This document shows, piece by piece, positions 4,971 through 15,674 of a stretch of 24,074 nt of DNA (positions are counted from its first letter, which is position 1; every line of letters begins with the position of its first letter). The position numbers and the translations under genes are program-made. The DNA lies in IMG/VR virus record IMGVR_UViG_3300021478_000110, positions 1-24,074 of that record; one strand, given 5' to 3'. The notes beneath the pieces are model-generated. The model was not told the DNA's origin, did no database searches, and saw only the letters and a list, made by a program, of their open reading frames with translations. The stretch is from a virus.

Positions 4971-5858
4971 ATGTCCACCGAGACTGTCTTCACCAAGCAG
5001 ATGGCGGCGGCCGTAGCGAACGGCATCTGCGTATCGCAATCTGGATCGGCGCTCACACCGCTCGTACTGAACGGCTCTCTCACTAATGCTCTTTCCACCA
5101 CGACCACCGCCGCGGTCGCCGCCGGTGGCGTCGTTCTGCCGCTCTCCTCGGTTGCCGGTCTCGTCGTCGGTCAAGTCGTCACCGATACGTCCGCTGTCGC
5201 CATTGCTGGTGGCACAACTATTGCGGCCGTCGGCGCCAGCAGCGTTACGCTCTCGCGTCCGGTTGGGGGCGTCGGCGTCGGCAACGGGGATACGATCGTC
5301 TTTCCCGGCACGGCGACGATCGACGTCGCGACTGCGACGAACTCGGCGATCGGGCGGCGGGTTGCTATTGCCTACACCGGCACCGACACCTCTTTCACGA
5401 TCGTCGGCACCAATTCGACCGGCAACGTCATCACAGACATAGCTGTCGGCGCGACCGGAGCGGCCCAGTCGAACCTCGACTTTGTGACGGTGACGAGCAT
5501 CACGCCGGTCGGCGGCGGTCTGACGGCCCTTACCGCCGGGACAAATGGTGTCGGCTCGTCCCCCTGGTGGACGGTCAACTGGCGCGGGAAGCCACCTCAG
5601 ACCGTCAGTGCTGGCGTTGAATTGGTGACCGGGACGGCGACCTATACCGTCGAGTACACTTTCGACGATCCCAATGCCCTGCAGGGGACGGTTCTGTTCC
5701 CGCTCGCGTTCAGCACTCAGACGCCGACGCTTCTCAAGGCGGTGTCGGCTACCGGCGACGGCGTCTTCAACTTCGCGTTCAAGGCCTTGAGGCTGAGCAT
5801 CACCGTCAACGGACCCGGCGAACTGCGCGCGAGATTTGTCCAGGCTGGGATCGGATAA
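4971..5858 (+). CDS. Ala/Thr/Val-rich virion structural protein (295 aa)
   Basis: ATG 4971 follows the previous stop by 3 nt with GGGGG at 4960-4964 as ribosome site. The protein has an N-terminal helix (TETVFTKQMAAAVANGICVS), then low-complexity beta-rich sequence to about residue 200, and a C-terminal domain with GTATYTVEYTFDDPNALQGT and closing NGPGELRARFVQAGIG. That ending recurs in structural proteins between the capsid and the adaptor gene of podovirus-type prophages as I recall. Likely a head fibre or decoration protein. Net charge is low and Cys is rare, as usual for virion proteins. Confidence 0.75.
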   Translation: MSTETVFTKQMAAAVANGICVSQSGSALTPLVLNGSLTNALSTTTTAAVAAGGVVLPLSSVAGLVVGQVVTDTSAVAIAGGTTIAAVGASSVTLSRPVGGVGVGNGDTIVFPGTATIDVATATNSAIGRRVAIAYTGTDTSFTIVGTNSTGNVITDIAVGATGAAQSNLDFVTVTSITPVGGGLTALTAGTNGVGSSPWWTVNWRGKPPQTVSAGVELVTGTATYTVEYTFDDPNALQGTVLFPLAFSTQTPTLLKAVSATGDGVFNFAFKALRLSITVNGPGELRARFVQAGIG

Positions 5859-8790: not shown

Positions 8791-9633
8791 ATGGGCGAGC
8801 TTCTCCCCCTGTCGGTTCTCAAGACCCTCTGGTCCCATGGGGATCAGCATGTGCCAGGGTTGATCGAGGGCATTGCGGCCTCAGCGCCTGCGGTGTTCGA
8901 AAAGTATGGCGTTACGACCACCTTGGAGGTTGCCCATATCATGGCGCAATTCTCCGAGGAATGTGGCGCCGGGTTGGAGATGGTCGAGAACTTGAACTAT
9001 TCCGCCGAAGGATTGCGGCGAACCTTCCCGACCCATTTCACCGAGTCCATGGCCGAGCACTATGCCCACAACCCGCGCATGATTGCCGACGTGGCCTATG
9101 GCGGGCGCATGGGCAACGCCCCGCCGCCCTCTGACGACGGCTGGAACTATCGCGGCAAGGGCCTGTCGCAATTGACCGGCAAGGCCAATTACACGCGCCT
9201 TGCGGTCGTTACCGGACTCGACGTGATCCACGACCCCGATATTCTTATTCGACCCGCCACGGCGCTCGAATGTGCCGTGGCTGATTTCGTCCGCATCTGC
9301 GGCTGCTTGCCGCTCGCCCGGCGCGACGACGTGCACGGGGTGACCCTCCATCTCAACGGGGGCTACAACGGCCTTGCGGAGCGCATACGCTGGCTTCGCG
9401 AATGGAAGGTGGCCCTGAAGCCGTTCTGGCAAACCGCACCAGCGGCCAAGCCACAGGCCTATACGCAGTCGTCAACGGGTACTCCCGTTCCCCTGAGTGG
9501 TGCGACCGATCCCCCGCCAGAAACGGCCGGCCAGGGGGTTTCCTGGGTCGGGCCGCCACCGCCGCCACCCAACCCGAGCCCGATCATGACGGCGCTGGCT
9601 AATCTCAAGGCCGAAGTCGAAAAGATCGTTTGA
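8791..9633 (+). CDS. Endolysin, GH19 chitinase-like muramidase (280 aa)
   Basis: The protein degrades peptidoglycan at the end of infection. The GH19 core runs to about residue 210: VAHIMAQFSEECGAGLEMVE with the catalytic Glu most likely E57 and the second acid E66, ENLNYSAEGLRRTFP, AYGGRMGN, and the hallmark DGWNYRGKGLSQLTGKANY (116-134). The end of the core (HGVTLHLNGGYNGLAERIRW) is also typical. The usual His before the first Glu is Glu here (EEC instead of HES), a minor departure. No signal peptide or SAR helix is seen, so export needs a holin. A Pro-rich linker (about 215-262) leads to a short helical tail (MTALANLKAEVEKIV). Start has AAAGG 9 nt upstream. Confidence 0.9.
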   Translation: MGELLPLSVLKTLWSHGDQHVPGLIEGIAASAPAVFEKYGVTTTLEVAHIMAQFSEECGAGLEMVENLNYSAEGLRRTFPTHFTESMAEHYAHNPRMIADVAYGGRMGNAPPPSDDGWNYRGKGLSQLTGKANYTRLAVVTGLDVIHDPDILIRPATALECAVADFVRICGCLPLARRDDVHGVTLHLNGGYNGLAERIRWLREWKVALKPFWQTAPAAKPQAYTQSSTGTPVPLSGATDPPPETAGQGVSWVGPPPPPPNPSPIMTALANLKAEVEKIV

Positions 9634-11809: not shown

Positions 11810-12030
11810 CGGCCGAGTTCGATCCGAGGCAAGAGGCTTTGGCAGCGGTGCGCGCGGCGTTCCATGAAAACATCAAGACTGTCTCGTCCGCTACCCTGGC
11901 CAGGGCGGCGGGGGGCGAACCTGTCGATAGCGTTATGGCCCACTTTCGCCTATCTCTTCATCTCGTCTTTTCGCTCTACGAGATGCACGTTAAAGAGATC
12001 GAAAGGCTTGGTGAGGCGAGAGCGGTATGA
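11767..12030 (+). CDS. Small helical phage protein (87 aa or 75 aa)
   Basis: The frame ends at TGA 12028-12030. ATG 11767 would overlap the DUF3597 gene by 43 nt and lacks a clear ribosome site. A TTG at 11806 overlaps that gene's stop as TTGA and gives a 75-residue product, so the true start may be there. The product is helical (DPRQEALAAVRAAFHENIKT, then FRLSLHLVFSLYEMHVKEIE). No membrane segment or known family. It is part of the lysis-region operon by spacing. Confidence 0.55.
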   Translation: MAQAKPHGSFGAELTAEFDPRQEALAAVRAAFHENIKTVSSATLARAAGGEPVDSVMAHFRLSLHLVFSLYEMHVKEIERLGEARAV

Positions 12031-12058
12031 AGGTTGAGAGGAGAAGGGGGGGCAAGCA

Positions 12059-12814
12059 ATGGTCAGGCGAGTACCAAGCGCCGACGAATCCAACGGCGGT
12101 GCTCTGCGCTATAACACTGGTGTCATGGCAGACCCGACACCGCTGACTACGCAGCAATTGCTGCGCGAGAACTTCTGGCTTCGCGAGCTTCTTGAAGCGC
12201 AACTCGGTGCGATCGAAGCTCGTATAGACGCGAGCGACAAAGCCGTCAAACTGTTGCAGGCATTTGCCGACCGGACCCCGACAACCATGGACGTGCAGCA
12301 TGAGGTATTCGCGCTTCGCGAGGTTCTGTCGGAGAAGCTGGCCGGGGTAAAGACGCAAATCTCCGAGCGCGACAACCAGGGCGACAAGGCTACCAAGGTC
12401 GTCGAGGCTGCGGTCGCCAACGCTTTTGCGGCGGCAAAGGAGGTTGTCAACAAGAGCGAGGGGCAATTCAAAGAGCAGATCAATGGGATCACTTCTCAGA
12501 TCAACACCATAACGAAAAACTATGACGACAAGATCGGCGGCATCGCAAAGTCCTATGAGGGACAGGTCGGCGACATCAAAGAGCGGCTGACCATAATCGA
12601 GAGCAAGACATCGATCAGCGATCCTTCTACGGCGATCACGCTGGCGAAGCTCGACGCAACGGTGGCGCGGTTGACATCGACCGGGGACGTCTCCAGCGGC
12701 CGCTCGGCTGGCGCGATTGCTTTGTGGGGGATCATTTTGGGATGCCTTGGTGCTGCTGTTTCGATAGGCACTCTCATCGTCGTCGCCATGAGCGTCATGA
12801 AGGCCCATGGCTAG
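12059..12814 (+). CDS. Coiled-coil protein with C-terminal membrane anchor (251 aa)
   Basis: The long middle part (about residues 35-190) is a charged coiled coil, with DVQHEVFALREVLSEKLAGV and repeated KEQINGITSQINTITKNYDD-type heptads. A single membrane segment ends the protein (IALWGIILGCLGAAVSIGTL, about 222-245). This tail-anchored layout is common in phage proteins of Rhizobiales that begin ..MDVQHEVFALREVLSEKL.., whose function is unknown. A spanin-like or membrane-tether role in lysis is possible. ATG 12059 has a G7 run about 8 nt upstream; ATG 12125 (MADPTPLTTQQ) is an alternative, and then a 39-codon frame at 12027-12146 would be free to be real. Its stop shares CTAG with the stop of the convergent gene. 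Confidence 0.7.
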   Translation: MVRRVPSADESNGGALRYNTGVMADPTPLTTQQLLRENFWLRELLEAQLGAIEARIDASDKAVKLLQAFADRTPTTMDVQHEVFALREVLSEKLAGVKTQISERDNQGDKATKVVEAAVANAFAAAKEVVNKSEGQFKEQINGITSQINTITKNYDDKIGGIAKSYEGQVGDIKERLTIIESKTSISDPSTAITLAKLDATVARLTSTGDVSSGRSAGAIALWGIILGCLGAAVSIGTLIVVAMSVMKAHG

Positions 12815-13080
12815 GTGACGGCGTCGCCGGGCGGCTTAGTCCGCATCTCCTGGAGAATTTCGGCCAAGGCCTGACAGGTCAAGCTCCACGTCAACTCATC
12901 CCCCCGCATCAACGCGGCCACCAGACTTCGCCGGGCATTATCTATTAGTCTGCGTTCTTCCGGCGTTGCGGGACGGTAAGGGGTCGGGTTGCGGCCCTTA
13001 AAGCACTCGTAACACAGCCCCGTCGTGTTCTTACGCTGCCGAAGCATCCTTCCGCAGCGCACGCATGCCCGTCTTCTCAT
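12811..13080 (-). CDS. Zinc-ribbon protein, possible regulator (89 aa)
   Basis: Start ATG 13080 is preceded on the minus strand by GAGGGACGGCAGG. A Cys4 ribbon is formed by C6/C9 (CVRCG) and C23/C26 (CYEC) in a very basic N-terminus (MRRRACVRCGRMLRQRKNTT). A Pro-rich hinge (RNPTPYRPATPEE) and a helical C-terminal half (RSLVAALMRGDELTWSLTCQ) follow. Ribbons followed by helices suggest nucleic-acid binding or a protein adaptor. It converges with the coiled-coil gene, the two TAG stops sharing the palindrome CTAG (12811-12814). The region upstream contains the plus-strand sRNA candidate, antisense to this gene's leader. Confidence 0.7.
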   Translation of the reverse strand: MRRRACVRCGRMLRQRKNTTGLCYECFKGRNPTPYRPATPEERRLIDNARRSLVAALMRGDELTWSLTCQALAEILQEMRTKPPGDAVT

Positions 13081-13093
13081 CCTGCCGTCCCTC

Positions 13094-13122
13094 TTGCCCT
13101 CGCTTGCCGGGCCGGCTATAAA
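13094..13122 (+). promoter_or_regulatory. Candidate sigma70 promoter of a small RNA
   Basis: TTGCCC (13094-13099) and TATAAA (13117-13122) are separated by exactly 17 bp. The predicted start is near 13129. It points toward a perfect intrinsic terminator 70-100 nt downstream with no plus-strand gene between, which is why I read it as an RNA-gene promoter. Confidence 0.55.
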
Positions 13123-13128
13123 TCAACG

Positions 13129-13227
13129 GTGGCGCCCGGACATTCGGAGCGCTGCATGAGCGTCCTCCTTGGACGTTTCCTCCCAGTAGTCTCAGACTGG
13201 GCCGCGCGCGCAGCGGCCCATTTTTTA
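13129..13227 (+). ncRNA. Candidate trans-acting small RNA, about 98 nt, with anti-Shine-Dalgarno motifs
   Basis: The transcript predicted from the promoter at 13094-13122 ends at the terminator 13198-13226. It can fold into a 5' hairpin (GCGC-CCG 13132-13138 with CGG-A-GCGC 13145-13152), a second hairpin (13159-13165 with 13171-13177) whose loop UCCUU belongs to CCUCCU (13164-13169), a single-stranded UCCUCCC (13178-13184), and the terminator stem. Exposed CCUCC motifs are complementary to ribosome-binding sites and are the mark of the CcsR/'cuckoo' and alpha-r14 sRNA groups of alphaproteobacteria; membership is inferred. CCCAGU (13182-13187) can also pair with ACUGGG (13196-13201), which competes with the terminator stem. 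It is antisense to the leader of the minus-strand gene at 12811-13080, so a cis role is also possible. Confidence 0.55.
13198..13226 (+). terminator. Perfect intrinsic terminator (plus strand)
   Basis: TGGGCCGC (13198-13205) pairs with GCGGCCCA (13213-13220) around a 7-nt loop, followed by six T (13221-13226). Both flanking genes are on the minus strand, so it must end a plus-strand transcript. Its T-run overlaps the stop codon of the ribbon-helix-helix gene (13225-13227). Confidence 0.9.
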
Positions 13228-13458
13228 TTCGCCGAGCAGGGCGTTAAGGTCGCGCACGACCTCGGTGCCAAGCATCGTGAGTACGAAGTCTCGGGCAAGC
13301 GCCCCACGAGTTATATTCCGATCGCGAGCTATGCGATCGAGCGCCGCGAACTGCTCGTGGGTCAGGTGGATCGAGACGTGACGTATCTTCCCTGTGGTCA
13401 CCCTGGCGTAATCACCGCGATAGGTGCTTGCCGCCCGAGAGTGTGGGGCGCTCGTCAT
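13225..13458 (-). CDS. Ribbon-helix-helix DNA-binding protein (77 aa)
   Basis: ATG 13456-13458 is chosen because it overlaps the stop of the upstream gene as ATGA, indicating translational coupling; an in-frame TTG at 13548 would give an implausible extension inside that gene. Residues 26-32 (RHVSIHL) form the beta-strand that enters the DNA groove. THEQFAALDRIARDRNITRG and ALARDFVLTML form the two helices of an Arc/MetJ/CopG-type fold. It is likely a dimeric repressor, either of phage genes or of its own operon. The inverted repeat at 14042-14057 in the operon's promoter region is a natural candidate operator. A toxin-antitoxin role is less likely, because the partner gene does not resemble a toxin. 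Confidence 0.75.
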   Translation of the reverse strand: MTSAPHSRAASTYRGDYARVTTGKIRHVSIHLTHEQFAALDRIARDRNITRGALARDFVLTMLGTEVVRDLNALLGE

Positions 13459-13994
13459 AGCGGCATCGGACCAGAATAGCTGATCGGGTGCGACGCTGGT
13501 GCGCGCACGAACACCAAGCCAGTCGTTCTCACGCGATGCGTTGCCCAACTGTCGGCGACAAGCACGCTGCGACCGTCATAAGAACCGGGAACGACCGGGG
13601 CGACATGCCGCCCTGGCCTCACGGCTGCATTTGCTGCTGCAGGCTCAACGTGGGGGAACTTCCTCCAATCATCCGCCCACCAGAGATTGACGCCCCTCCA
13701 GAACTGATCGACGACGCCGAGCACCTTCCACCCCGCCCAGCATCCGCAGGGACCGCCCATCGAGGCGGCCCGCCAGAAGCAAGCCGGCTTGCCGCCGCTC
13801 CCGACGTGAACAGGGTCTCGGTGCCTAACGTAGTGGCGCTGATGGTGATACCGGAAATGCCGCATCGCCAGATAGCGGCCGAAGTGAACGTGTCGGTGAT
13901 AATGGTGTCGCAGGTGTCGGTAGCTCGCGTCTGCCTGGGAACTCAACATCGTGATGGCGGACGCAATAGTGCCAATGAGTAGTAAGACTCTCAT
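13455..13994 (-). CDS. Secreted His-rich phage protein (179 aa)
   Basis: ATG 13994 has GAGAGGG about 5 nt upstream and is preferred to earlier in-frame starts. Residues 1-23 form a signal peptide (MRVLLLIGTIASAITM, with A-D-A near 21-23). Residues 27-58 are extremely His/Arg/Tyr-rich (RHLRHHYHRHVHFGRYLAMR). The C-terminal domain has ACFWRAASMGGPCGCWAGWK, WADDWRKFP and RTTGLVFVRAPAS. That domain faintly recalls the AWCGW..R..LG.. / V.R...S..GA..F pattern of small exported envelope proteins in Rhizobiales that resemble CHAP-type amidases, but the amidase His/Cys pair is not evident here. Metal binding by the His-rich part is likely. It heads a two-gene operon with the ribbon-helix-helix gene. 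Confidence 0.7.
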   Translation of the reverse strand: MRVLLLIGTIASAITMLSSQADASYRHLRHHYHRHVHFGRYLAMRHFRYHHQRHYVRHRDPVHVGSGGKPACFWRAASMGGPCGCWAGWKVLGVVDQFWRGVNLWWADDWRKFPHVEPAAANAAVRPGRHVAPVVPGSYDGRSVLVADSWATHRVRTTGLVFVRAPASHPISYSGPMPL

Positions 13995-14036
13995 TTCACC
14001 CTCTCTGTTCCGGCCCTTCAACGGGGCCGCCCCAAA

Positions 14037-14064
14037 CCTATAGGGAAAAGTTTCCCTTGCGCAA
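14037..14064 (-). promoter_or_regulatory. Promoter with operator-like inverted repeat in the spacer
   Basis: On the minus strand TTGCGC (14064-14059) is followed after 16 bp by TATAGG (14042-14037). The spacer holds a perfect inverted repeat, AGGGAAA (14042-14048) and TTTCCCT (14051-14057), two bases apart. A repressor bound here would cover the promoter. It faces the His-rich/ribbon-helix-helix operon, and the divergent plus-strand gene starts 50 bp away. GGCCC/GGGCC in the 14012-14028 leader can form a hairpin. Confidence 0.45.
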
Positions 14065-14113
14065 CCCGCAATTTTCCGTGTAGTTTTCCACAGGCTTTGT
14101 GGAGGGGGATCGA

Positions 14114-14380
14114 GTGTTTGCCATCCCGGTTTTCCTGATCGCCATTGCTGCATTTTTGGCACCAATAGCTCCGGTCCTTAGCGCCGTGGGCGCGAGCGCC
14201 GGGCTCTACGGCGACTACCAGCGGACCCACTCGGTCAGCGTCAACCGCAAACAGTTCAACGCCATGCGGCGCGACATCGCTAGCCTCAAGCGCGAGGTGG
14301 CGCAGTTGCGCTTGCTTGTTCGCAAGCAGCATGCTGGCGGCACAAAGATCGCCCATCGGAGACACCGAGTCAGATCGTAA
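14114..14380 (+). CDS. Small membrane-anchored coiled-coil protein (88 aa)
   Basis: GTG 14114 is chosen because GGAGGGGG (14101-14108) lies 5 nt upstream; an earlier GTG at 14099 would overlap that site. A hydrophobic N-terminus (FAIPVFLIAIAAFLAPIAPV) acts as a membrane anchor or uncleaved signal. A basic coiled coil (FNAMRRDIASLKREVAQLRL) and a strongly basic tail (RRHRVRS) follow. A single N-terminal TM plus coiled coil resembles inner-membrane spanin subunits, but no partner lipoprotein is visible. It is divergent from the His-rich gene. Confidence 0.65.
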   Translation: MFAIPVFLIAIAAFLAPIAPVLSAVGASAGLYGDYQRTHSVSVNRKQFNAMRRDIASLKREVAQLRLLVRKQHAGGTKIAHRRHRVRS

Positions 14381-14404
14381 TCCCCGTAGTGTAGGAGTAG
14401 CGCA

Positions 14405-14803
14405 ATGAGTGAGTATCTTTCTCGTCGGAAGCGTGACGTACTGATTGATCACCTCGACGGGCGTCTGGTCGTCATCCGCAACAAGCACGCCGCCGTTCTC
14501 AAGGGGGTAGAAGCCACCGAGTGGGAAAGGAATCGGGTATCCACGAAGAGCCTTGTTGGCGATGGATACCTGGAAGAAGTTGGCGACATTCACACCCAAA
14601 TCACCCAGAAGGGGCGAGAAGCCCTGGCCGAGCTTCTGGCGGATCACGCCGAAGCGCTGATCCAAGCTGGCTGGGATGCAGAGGCCGTTCCGCGCACGCC
14701 TGCGATATGGCTCCATCTGATCGAGCGGAAGATCAAATCATCCTTCAGGCCAGGACCAGATACGGCGATGTCGACCTTGTCCTCGGCGGCCGGATCGACG
14801 TGA
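14405..14803 (+). CDS. Putative winged-helix-like protein (132 aa)
   Basis: ATG 14405 has AGGAG about 7 nt upstream. The sequence LSRRKRDVLIDHLDGRLVVI, then RNRVSTKSLVGDGYLEEVGD and ITQKGREALAELLADHAEAL reads as helices plus a beta-wing followed by the 'LT.KGR.AL..LL' helix seen in MarR-like phage proteins. It may be a DNA-binding regulator. The last 50 residues lie opposite a plausible minus-strand gene (14644-14871), and the final 20 (MSTLSSAAGST end) look non-conserved. The real function-bearing part is probably residues 1-90. It follows the small membrane gene by 24 nt. Confidence 0.6.
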   Translation: MSEYLSRRKRDVLIDHLDGRLVVIRNKHAAVLKGVEATEWERNRVSTKSLVGDGYLEEVGDIHTQITQKGREALAELLADHAEALIQAGWDAEAVPRTPAIWLHLIERKIKSSFRPGPDTAMSTLSSAAGST

Positions 14804-15347: not shown

Positions 15348-15674
15348 GCGCGAGATATTCCCTTTGACACAGCGATCCATTGGAGGCAAGAGAGGCACCG
15401 AGGCTACCGGCGCGGCACAGCCGCACTCAATCGCACTCACCGAACCGTCATGCTTCTCCGATGTGGGCGGATGTTCTATGCGAGGTAACAGCTCTCATGC
15501 TCGTGTCAAATGCTGCTAGGCCCATGAGAGTGATCCGTCGGTGACGGCGGATTGCCGGCATAGAGATCGGTGGCGCTAAGATCGGTGTAGGGGAAGTGGC
15601 TCCCTGGTGCGAGGTGATGGCCGCTGCCGGTTACAGATTGCGTCGCCCAAATGAAGAATTGGTGGCTGCCTTTC
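15348..15674. other. Apparently non-coding stretch with repeats
   Basis: No frame on either strand in this interval has both a ribosome site and protein-like composition. It contains an 8-bp inverted repeat CTCTCATG/CATGAGAG (15492-15499/15523-15530, 23 nt apart), a small hairpin CCGTC/GACGG (15535-15539/15543-15547), and a direct repeat AGATCGGTG at 15564-15572 and 15579-15587 (period 15 bp). TTGACA occurs on the plus strand at 15364-15369 without a fitting -10. It may be regulatory or an origin-like region; nothing proves either. Confidence 0.35.

What the first reader, a model, noticed from the sequence alone, without database searches (positions are those of the whole stretch)
13094..13227. 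Complete small-RNA gene candidate with anti-Shine-Dalgarno loops
A TTGCCC-N17-TATAAA promoter, a non-coding 98-nt stretch and a perfect terminator align on the plus strand between two minus-strand genes. The RNA exposes CCUCCU in a hairpin loop and UCCUCCC in a linker, which would pair with ribosome-binding sites. That is the signature of the CcsR ('cuckoo') and alpha-r14 RNAs of alphaproteobacteria. A phage copy could reprogram host or phage translation. A competing hairpin (CCCAGU/ACUGGG) could modulate the terminator.
Basis: partly seen in the sequence, partly recalled or inferred. Interest (0 to 1): 0.72.

Follow-up and report, generated by a model that had tools for sequence, protein, structure and literature searches.

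The report
Phage-borne alpha-r8 (MmgR/SisA-type) small RNA
A bacterial virus carries its own version of a small regulatory RNA that its host bacteria use to switch off nutrient-related genes, and many other viruses of the same bacterial group carry one too, some of them right beside the likely switch for their late genes.

Summary
The small-RNA gene looks real, but the proposed family is wrong. The RNA at 13129-13226 (+) is a divergent relative of alpha-r8 (Rfam RF00519, MmgR; SisA-D in Caulobacter): 38.6 bits (curated cut-off 41), E 1e-6. A model built from 62 other viral RNAs, window excluded, gives 42.7 bits, E 1.8e-9. It keeps 9 of 10 letters of the seed UUUCCUCCCU; CCUCCC is predicted unpaired, UUU mostly paired. 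The ar14 model does not match. One seed pattern hits at least 119 IMG/VR stretches, so such RNAs are common in viral contigs. In 16 of 100 viral contexts a NusG/RfaH-like gene lies just upstream on the same strand, with HNH/terminase genes downstream. Starting from that protein, 17 of 20 contigs carry the RNA. This recalls the Shiga-phage StxS late-leader RNA. The window phage has no detected NusG paralog; its RNA lies beyond the late genes and holds the strongest nearby terminator. Best mechanism, inferred: an Hfq-type RNA blocking ribosome-binding sites. Transcript and targets are not shown.

The parts
13094..13122 (+). putative promoter TTGCCC-N17-TATAAA
   Evidence: sequence; consensus match at near-chance level
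13129..13226 (+). alpha-r8-like small RNA (inferred 98 nt)
   Evidence: RF00519 38.6 bits over 13155-13234; model R1 42.7 bits over 13135-13227; fold z -3.69; ends inferred, no transcript data
13129..13155 (+). stem-loop 1 at the inferred 5' end (GUGGCGCC...GCGCUGC)
   Evidence: fold; by eye resembles the first stem of some other viral alpha-r8 RNAs (GGUAGCGCC...GCGCUAUCGCUGC)
13158..13178 (+). stem-loop 2, with GUCC/GGAC in place of the consensus GCCC/GGGC; its stem extends into the UUU of the seed
   Evidence: folds; Rfam alignment
13176..13185 (+). seed linker UUUCCUCCCA (9 of 10 letters of the alpha-r8 10-mer UUUCCUCCCU)
   Evidence: sequence; CCUCCC unpaired with probability 0.89-0.99, UUU 0.05-0.22
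13182..13201 (+). competing hairpin CCCAGU/ACUGGG, favoured only before the terminator is complete
13198..13226 (+). intrinsic terminator; strongest of three terminator-like + sites in 12000-14500 and the only one before 14057
12811..13080 (-). neighbour gene, 89 aa, cysteine-containing; the RNA is antisense to its upstream region
   Evidence: no family match
13225..13458 (-). neighbour gene, 77 aa from an ATG, ribbon-helix-helix-like by eye only; its stop codon overlaps the T run of the terminator
   Evidence: no Pfam, PHROG or PDB match
12059..12814 (+). last gene of the + strand side of the window that holds the endolysin (8791-9633)
   Evidence: no PHROG match for this gene itself

Best explanation
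The feature is a phage gene for a trans-acting small RNA that is a divergent relative of the alpha-r8 (MmgR/SisA) family. Shown by computation: family resemblance, a predicted unpaired CCUCCC, a hairpin before it, a strong terminator after it. Inferred: it is transcribed from about 13129, by its own weak promoter and/or as the 3' end of late-gene transcripts that stop at the same terminator. Inferred: it loads on host Hfq and pairs with GGGAGGAAA-like ribosome-binding sites to block translation of host mRNAs, as SisA does. The likely benefit is to impose or mimic the host's own alpha-r8 programme (nutrient uptake, carbon storage) during infection.
For: RF00519 is the only family of 4227 with a significant match: 38.6 bits, E 1e-6 in the 301-nt search; E 8.4e-8 in the 102-kb record, searched with that family alone. 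Model R1, built without the window, gives 42.7 bits, E 1.8e-9; the next site in the window has 13.6 bits. Related viral RNAs are widespread: at least 119 stretches for one pattern; after adding variant scans, 144 loci in 112 groups. 100 of 110 have a strict terminator within 75 nt against 38 of 1100 random segments of the same loci; by a looser rule 102 of 110 against 217 of 1100. Five sequenced phages carry one. Ten alphaproteobacterial genomes, chosen because they hold the pattern, have 1-8 RF00519 matches each. SisA represses a receptor mRNA through the same 10-mer at the ribosome-binding site, with Hfq and compensatory mutations (PMC12559287, sections 7-9 and part of the discussion read).
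Against: The Rfam score is below the curated cut-off (38.6 < 41). At E<=0.01 two non-alphaproteobacterial control genomes also ring with this family, none at 1e-5. The 10-mer has one change (last U to A), its UUU is predicted mostly paired, and the linker has an insertion. The promoter is at chance level. No transcript, Hfq or target data exist. No second lineage of this phage was found, so selection on this copy cannot be tested. Hairpin covariation is weak support: in the variant scans 2 of 27, 0 of 3 and 3 of 3 rows pair fully. Pairing to the phage's own start regions is unremarkable. The host is not identified.
Confidence: 0.7

Rival explanations
1. It is an alpha-r14/CcsR ('cuckoo') RNA.
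For: It has CCUCC letters in a loop region and a linker.
Against: No ar14 match at E<=10 (no positive control); CCUCCUCCC absent from the sequence; two stem-loops plus terminator rather than three hairpins with the identical motif.
Confidence: 0.03
2. It is mainly the terminator and 3' untranslated end of the phage late operon; any small RNA is a processed 3' fragment rather than the product of its own promoter.
For: It is the only terminator-like + site listed between 12000 and 14057. In phages Mwe-JY08 and vB_MweS-yong2 the alpha-r8 RNA follows the last + gene directly. The promoter here is weak.
Against: A - strand gene (12811-13080) lies between the last + gene and the RNA; stem-loop 1 starts 7 nt after the TATAAA box, as expected of a start site. 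Compatible with, not opposed to, an alpha-r8 function.
Confidence: 0.3
3. It is a cis-antisense regulator of the - strand neighbours (12811-13080, 13225-13548).
For: It overlaps their intergenic region on the opposite strand.
Against: It does not explain the match to a trans-acting family.
Confidence: 0.12
4. It is an attachment site or captured 3' end of a host alpha-r8 gene.
For: Integrating elements often use small-RNA genes (recalled). In vB_MweS-yong2 the RNA lies beside a gene annotated integrase, which the PF00589 search did not confirm.
Against: No PF00589 integrase domain in the window or the 102-kb record at E<=0.01 (serine integrases were not searched). In ppBeUSDA76-1 and ppBdUSDA122-1 the integrase lies more than 11 kb from the RNA. 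The longest alignment with 120 host loci is 23 nt with one mismatch.
Confidence: 0.04

Closest known systems
alpha-r8 family: MmgR (Sinorhizobium), SisA-D (Caulobacter), Rfam RF00519 suhB
   Same: Short hairpin, CCUCCC-bearing linker, GC-rich terminator, similar length, stand-alone gene.
   Different: In a phage; below the Rfam cut-off; last letter of the 10-mer changed and its UUU predicted paired; linker longer; a 5' stem-loop outside the Rfam match; host copies here often lie next to an inositol monophosphatase gene (29 of 72 scanned upstream neighbours), this one does not.
StxS (Shiga-toxin phage late-leader RNA; PMC7873438, passages read)
   Same: A phage small RNA that pairs with ribosome-binding sites and is tied to late transcription; for the NusG-linked relatives the gene order is similar.
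   Different: StxS comes from PR' with termination at tR'; nothing here says it is an alpha-r8 RNA. In the window phage no antiterminator was detected.
alpha-r14/NfeR1 and CcsR ('cuckoo') RNAs
   Same: Anti-Shine-Dalgarno pairing logic.
   Different: Different motif and structure; no model match.
alpha-r15/AbcR
   Same: Partial homology to RF00519 is reported for that family (PMC7143759, passages read), and S. meliloti loci later called AbcR carry RF00519 labels (PMC2873474, passages).
   Different: AbcR RNAs are 114-120 nt with two CU-rich unpaired motifs; not shown to fit better here.

Membership tests
alpha-r8 / RF00519 | covariance-model score at or above the curated cut-off (41 bits) | tested here: not met
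   38.6 bits, E 1e-6 in 301 nt. Phages BDU-MI-1 (37.0) and ppBdUSDA122-1 (32.0) also fall below; 9 of 12 viral records searched, all chosen as carriers, pass
alpha-r8 / RF00519 | 10-mer UUUCCUCCCU, single-stranded, after a weak hairpin | tested here: inconclusive
   UUUCCUCCCA, 9 of 10; CCUCCC unpaired 0.89-0.99 but UUU only 0.05-0.22. vB_MweS-yong2 also has CCCAG and passes the cut-off
alpha-r8 / RF00519 | Rho-independent terminator after the linker | tested here: met
   13198-13226; strict rule met by the window and by 100 of 110 viral relatives against 38 of 1100 controls
alpha-r8 / RF00519 | Hfq binding and repression at ribosome-binding sites | not testable with these tools
   shown for SisA in PMC12559287
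alpha-r14 / CcsR (cuckoo) | CCUCCUCCC in each of three hairpins | tested here: not met
   absent from 13129-13226; definition
alpha-r14 / CcsR (cuckoo) | match to Rfam ar14 (RF02344) | tested here: not met
   0 of 2 records at E<=10; no control genome passes the cut-off, so no positive control
alpha-r15 (AbcR) | better match to an alpha-r15 model than to RF00519 | tested here: inconclusive
   not listed at E<=10, but only the best of overlapping clan members is kept there; RF00519 itself also labels AbcR loci
StxS-like late-leader RNA | antiterminator gene upstream and late operon downstream on the same strand | tested here: not met
   no NusG-domain gene found in the window or 102-kb record; neighbouring genes judged to lie on the - strand. 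The order is seen in 16 of 100 other viral contexts

The most novel reading that the evidence does not exclude
Alphaproteobacterial phages have repeatedly placed a host-type alpha-r8 RNA at the border of their late genes. In one large group the RNA is the terminated leader of the late promoter. A phage-encoded NusG/RfaH paralog just upstream converts that short transcript into the full late mRNA, so a lysogen constantly makes a host-mimic regulator from the idle late promoter. This would be a StxS-like design built independently from a host core regulator and a different antiterminator. The window phage shows a detached version at the far end of its late operon.
Probability: 0.5. Interest if true: 0.82.

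Novelty: new variant of a known kind. Interest (0 to 1): 0.62.

Why it matters
MmgR in Sinorhizobium limits carbon storage and SisA in Caulobacter represses nutrient-related genes. If phages carry functional copies, infection or lysogeny could reset that network, and some 'extra' alpha-r8 copies in genomes may be prophage-borne. The NusG-linked group offers a directly testable late-gene switch in temperate phages of Bradyrhizobium, where the RNA is not annotated in the two records looked at.

Tried and rejected
Rejected: alpha-r14/CcsR. Attachment site. Hairpin covariation as proof: in the variant scans, 2 of 27, 0 of 3 and 3 of 3 rows pair fully, and alignment A6 shows no pair changed on both sides because the search pattern fixed the stem. 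An RfaH 'ops'-like reading of CGGTAGC in the leader: present in 4 of 16 NusG-linked, 9 of 91 other viral and 20 of 125 host sites, so not specific. Self-targeting of phage start regions: mean -11.7 against -10.0 kcal/mol for random 36-mers, not persuasive. Close relatives of the window phage: only one record found. A first ORF picker was replaced by one using codon bias. One search was meant to look for more phages with the RNA, but its query lay on flanking DNA, so it says nothing about the RNA. The window's own sequence found no such phage or plasmid by blastn.

Rows dropped: of 152 viral loci L002-L153, 8 did not fit the regular expression; 144 were pooled to 112 groups. L121 (the window's own phage) was left out of the downstream list and of the terminator count but is in the upstream list. 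Of 45 downstream proteins of the NusG-linked loci, 40 were scanned. Of 111 host upstream neighbours, 72 (about 350 nt or longer) were scanned. A6 used 62 of 100 available RNAs. One search scanned 18 of 20 loci. The TAGG box was chosen after looking at the sequences.

Full report
What is there. The window is a virus record of 24,074 bases with matches to endolysin, DNA helicase, primosomal and radical-SAM families. A 102-kb IMG/VR record holds nearly the same DNA (99.8% over 12.3 kb). The named interval contains TTGCCC-N17-TATAAA (13094-13122), a 98-nt stretch and a terminator ending at 13226. The RNA folds well beyond shuffles (-46.4 kcal/mol, z -3.69). The promoter is weak evidence on its own: sites of that quality, this one included, occur 13 times in the window on both strands. 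Terminator-like sites are not in excess as a class (3 against 2.4 in shuffles), though this is the strongest. The competing hairpin is real but probably transient: it is the best fold while the transcript ends near 13201, and the complete RNA prefers the terminator by 3.5 kcal/mol.

What it is. Against 4227 Rfam families the only significant match is RF00519 suhB, described as MmgR, the alpha-r8 family: 38.6 bits, E 1e-6. Searched with that family alone, the 102-kb record gives E 8.4e-8; at the looser limit of 0.01 two unrelated control genomes also ring, at 1e-5 only Caulobacter does. The curated cut-off is 41 bits, so Rfam's own rule does not list it. I built a second model from 62 viral RNAs without the window; it has only four base pairs, so it scores mainly sequence. 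It gives the window 42.7 bits, E 1.8e-9 (rough calibration), against 13.6 bits for the next site. The window keeps CCUCCUUGG-ACG-UUUCCUCCC and differs from the consensus by GUCC/GGAC in the hairpin, the last letter of the 10-mer, and a longer linker. In its predicted fold CCUCCC is free but UUU is mostly paired in an extended stem. I therefore call it a divergent relative that should work like alpha-r8, not a certified member. The ar14 model does not match, and the CCUCCUCCC motif described for alpha-r14 is absent.

Relatives in phages. With variant scans 152 loci were held; 144 fitted the context script and fell into 112 groups. Strict terminators follow the core in 100 of 110 against 38 of 1100 random segments from the same loci; by a looser rule 102 of 110 against 217 of 1100. 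Among 50,697 phage records one query (from L045) found five phages with such an RNA: Bradyrhizobium phages ppBeUSDA76-1, ppBdUSDA122-1 and BDU-MI-1, and Microcystis phages Mwe-JY08 and vB_MweS-yong2; all five match RF00519 at E<=0.01 and three pass its cut-off. The window's own sequence did not find them. None of the five has an RNA annotated there; in Mwe-JY08 a hypothetical gene is drawn across it.

Context. In hosts, 29 of 72 scanned upstream neighbours are inositol monophosphatase genes, as the name suhB suggests. In viruses, the commonest upstream family is PHROG 6386, 'transcription antiterminator' (14 of 100). BLASTP links 16 of 100 upstream proteins into one group. All 16 genes lie on the RNA's strand, ending 115-476 nt before the core. 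In a subset of 12, all 12 match Pfam NusG at E<=0.1 (best 4e-13) and 4 also KOW. A predicted structure (mean pLDDT 78.8, pTM 0.58) has NusG and RfaH as its best PDB matches (E down to 3e-10), but whole-chain TM-scores are only about 0.4. Downstream, 9 of 101 first neighbours of all viral RNAs match HNH families. Among 40 downstream proteins of the NusG-linked loci 6 match HNH, and large-terminase families match up to 5 each. A TAGG-type box, chosen after seeing the sequences, precedes the RNA in 14 of 16 of these, 21 of 93 other viral and 7 of 119 host copies. Most viral groups therefore do not show this arrangement. Starting from the protein instead, 20 contigs were found and 17 carry the RNA at E<=0.01: 15 with the core 167-306 nt after the gene, one about 160 nt away and weak (L304, 25 bits), one about 900 nt away (L308). 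In three (L295, L299, L301) none was found in the stretch held. At least four of the 20 contigs had been seen before, and the four query proteins all come from RNA-bearing phages, so this is a consistency test and not a census. In L302 and L309 the hairpin is rebuilt with other letters while GGGCGUUUCCUCCC stays.

The window's own place. No NusG-domain gene was found in the window or the 102-kb record (Pfam search, controls ring in 11 of 14; alignment search without a positive control). The RNA follows the + strand side that holds the endolysin and supplies the only terminator-like + site listed before 14057, with a - strand gene in between. In Mwe-JY08 and vB_MweS-yong2 the RNA comes directly after the last + gene of that run. 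So the RNA seems to sit at the far border of the late unit here and at the near border in the NusG-linked group; that the units are 'late' rests on gene content.

How it probably works. For SisA, Hfq-dependent pairing of the 10-mer to a ribosome-binding site was shown with compensatory mutations for a TonB-dependent receptor mRNA, and other targets were confirmed with reporters (PMC12559287, sections 7-9 and part of the discussion read). MmgR limits polyhydroxybutyrate storage (PMC7143759, passages). The window RNA exposes CCUCCC of that 10-mer. The step from family resemblance to function is inference. Whether it mimics the host RNA, competes with it, or is soaked up by a CrfA-like sponge is open. 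A role in lowering phage receptors before lysis is speculation.

What is in print. I saw no report of phage-borne alpha-r8 RNAs in the open-access library, with these limits: alpha-r8 plus phage gave 3 papers, two looked at by passages; RF00519 gave 10, three looked at by passages; mmgR/suhB RNA with phage words gave 7,146, of which 20 listings were seen; alpha-r8 synonyms gave 4; Bradyrhizobium phage with small RNA gave none. The founding paper noted multiple copies per genome and no fixed neighbours, and the word phage does not occur in it (PMC1273637, passages). A 2025 review of phage small RNAs was searched by term only and has no hit for rhizobia or alphaproteobacteria (PMC12197685). The phylogenetic paper on the family cited as reference 42 in PMC12559287 was not opened, so prior mention there cannot be excluded.

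Noticed in passing
L007, L011, L022, L027, L031, L154, L155 and others: Phages carry a NusG/RfaH paralog (PHROG 6386) directly upstream of an alpha-r8 RNA and, in several, HNH/terminase genes downstream; possible late antiterminator.
   Followed up: partly
window 15564-15633: 70 bp, 84% identical to L015 2487-2556, another contig with an alpha-r8 RNA; no Rfam match, no match in named phages; may be a short open frame.
   Followed up: partly
L156 5024-5290 (Microcystis phage Mwe-JY08): A hypothetical gene is annotated across part of an alpha-r8 RNA (RF00519 match 4995-5078); the annotation may be wrong.
   Followed up: partly
L302 and L309, downstream of the NusG-like gene: Hairpin before the seed is rebuilt with other letters (for example CCCUUC-GCU-GAAGGG) while the linker is unchanged, suggesting the linker is the functional core.
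   Followed up: no
L156, L157: Two phages recorded as infecting Microcystis carry an RNA whose listed host loci here are Alphaproteobacteria or unresolved Proteobacteria; their host assignment may deserve a check.
   Followed up: no
L123, L127, L130, L133, L139, L141: Viral RNAs with CUUGGACGUUUCCUCCCU and a terminator whose GGAC does not pair fully with the usual 5' arm; perhaps a sub-family.
   Followed up: no
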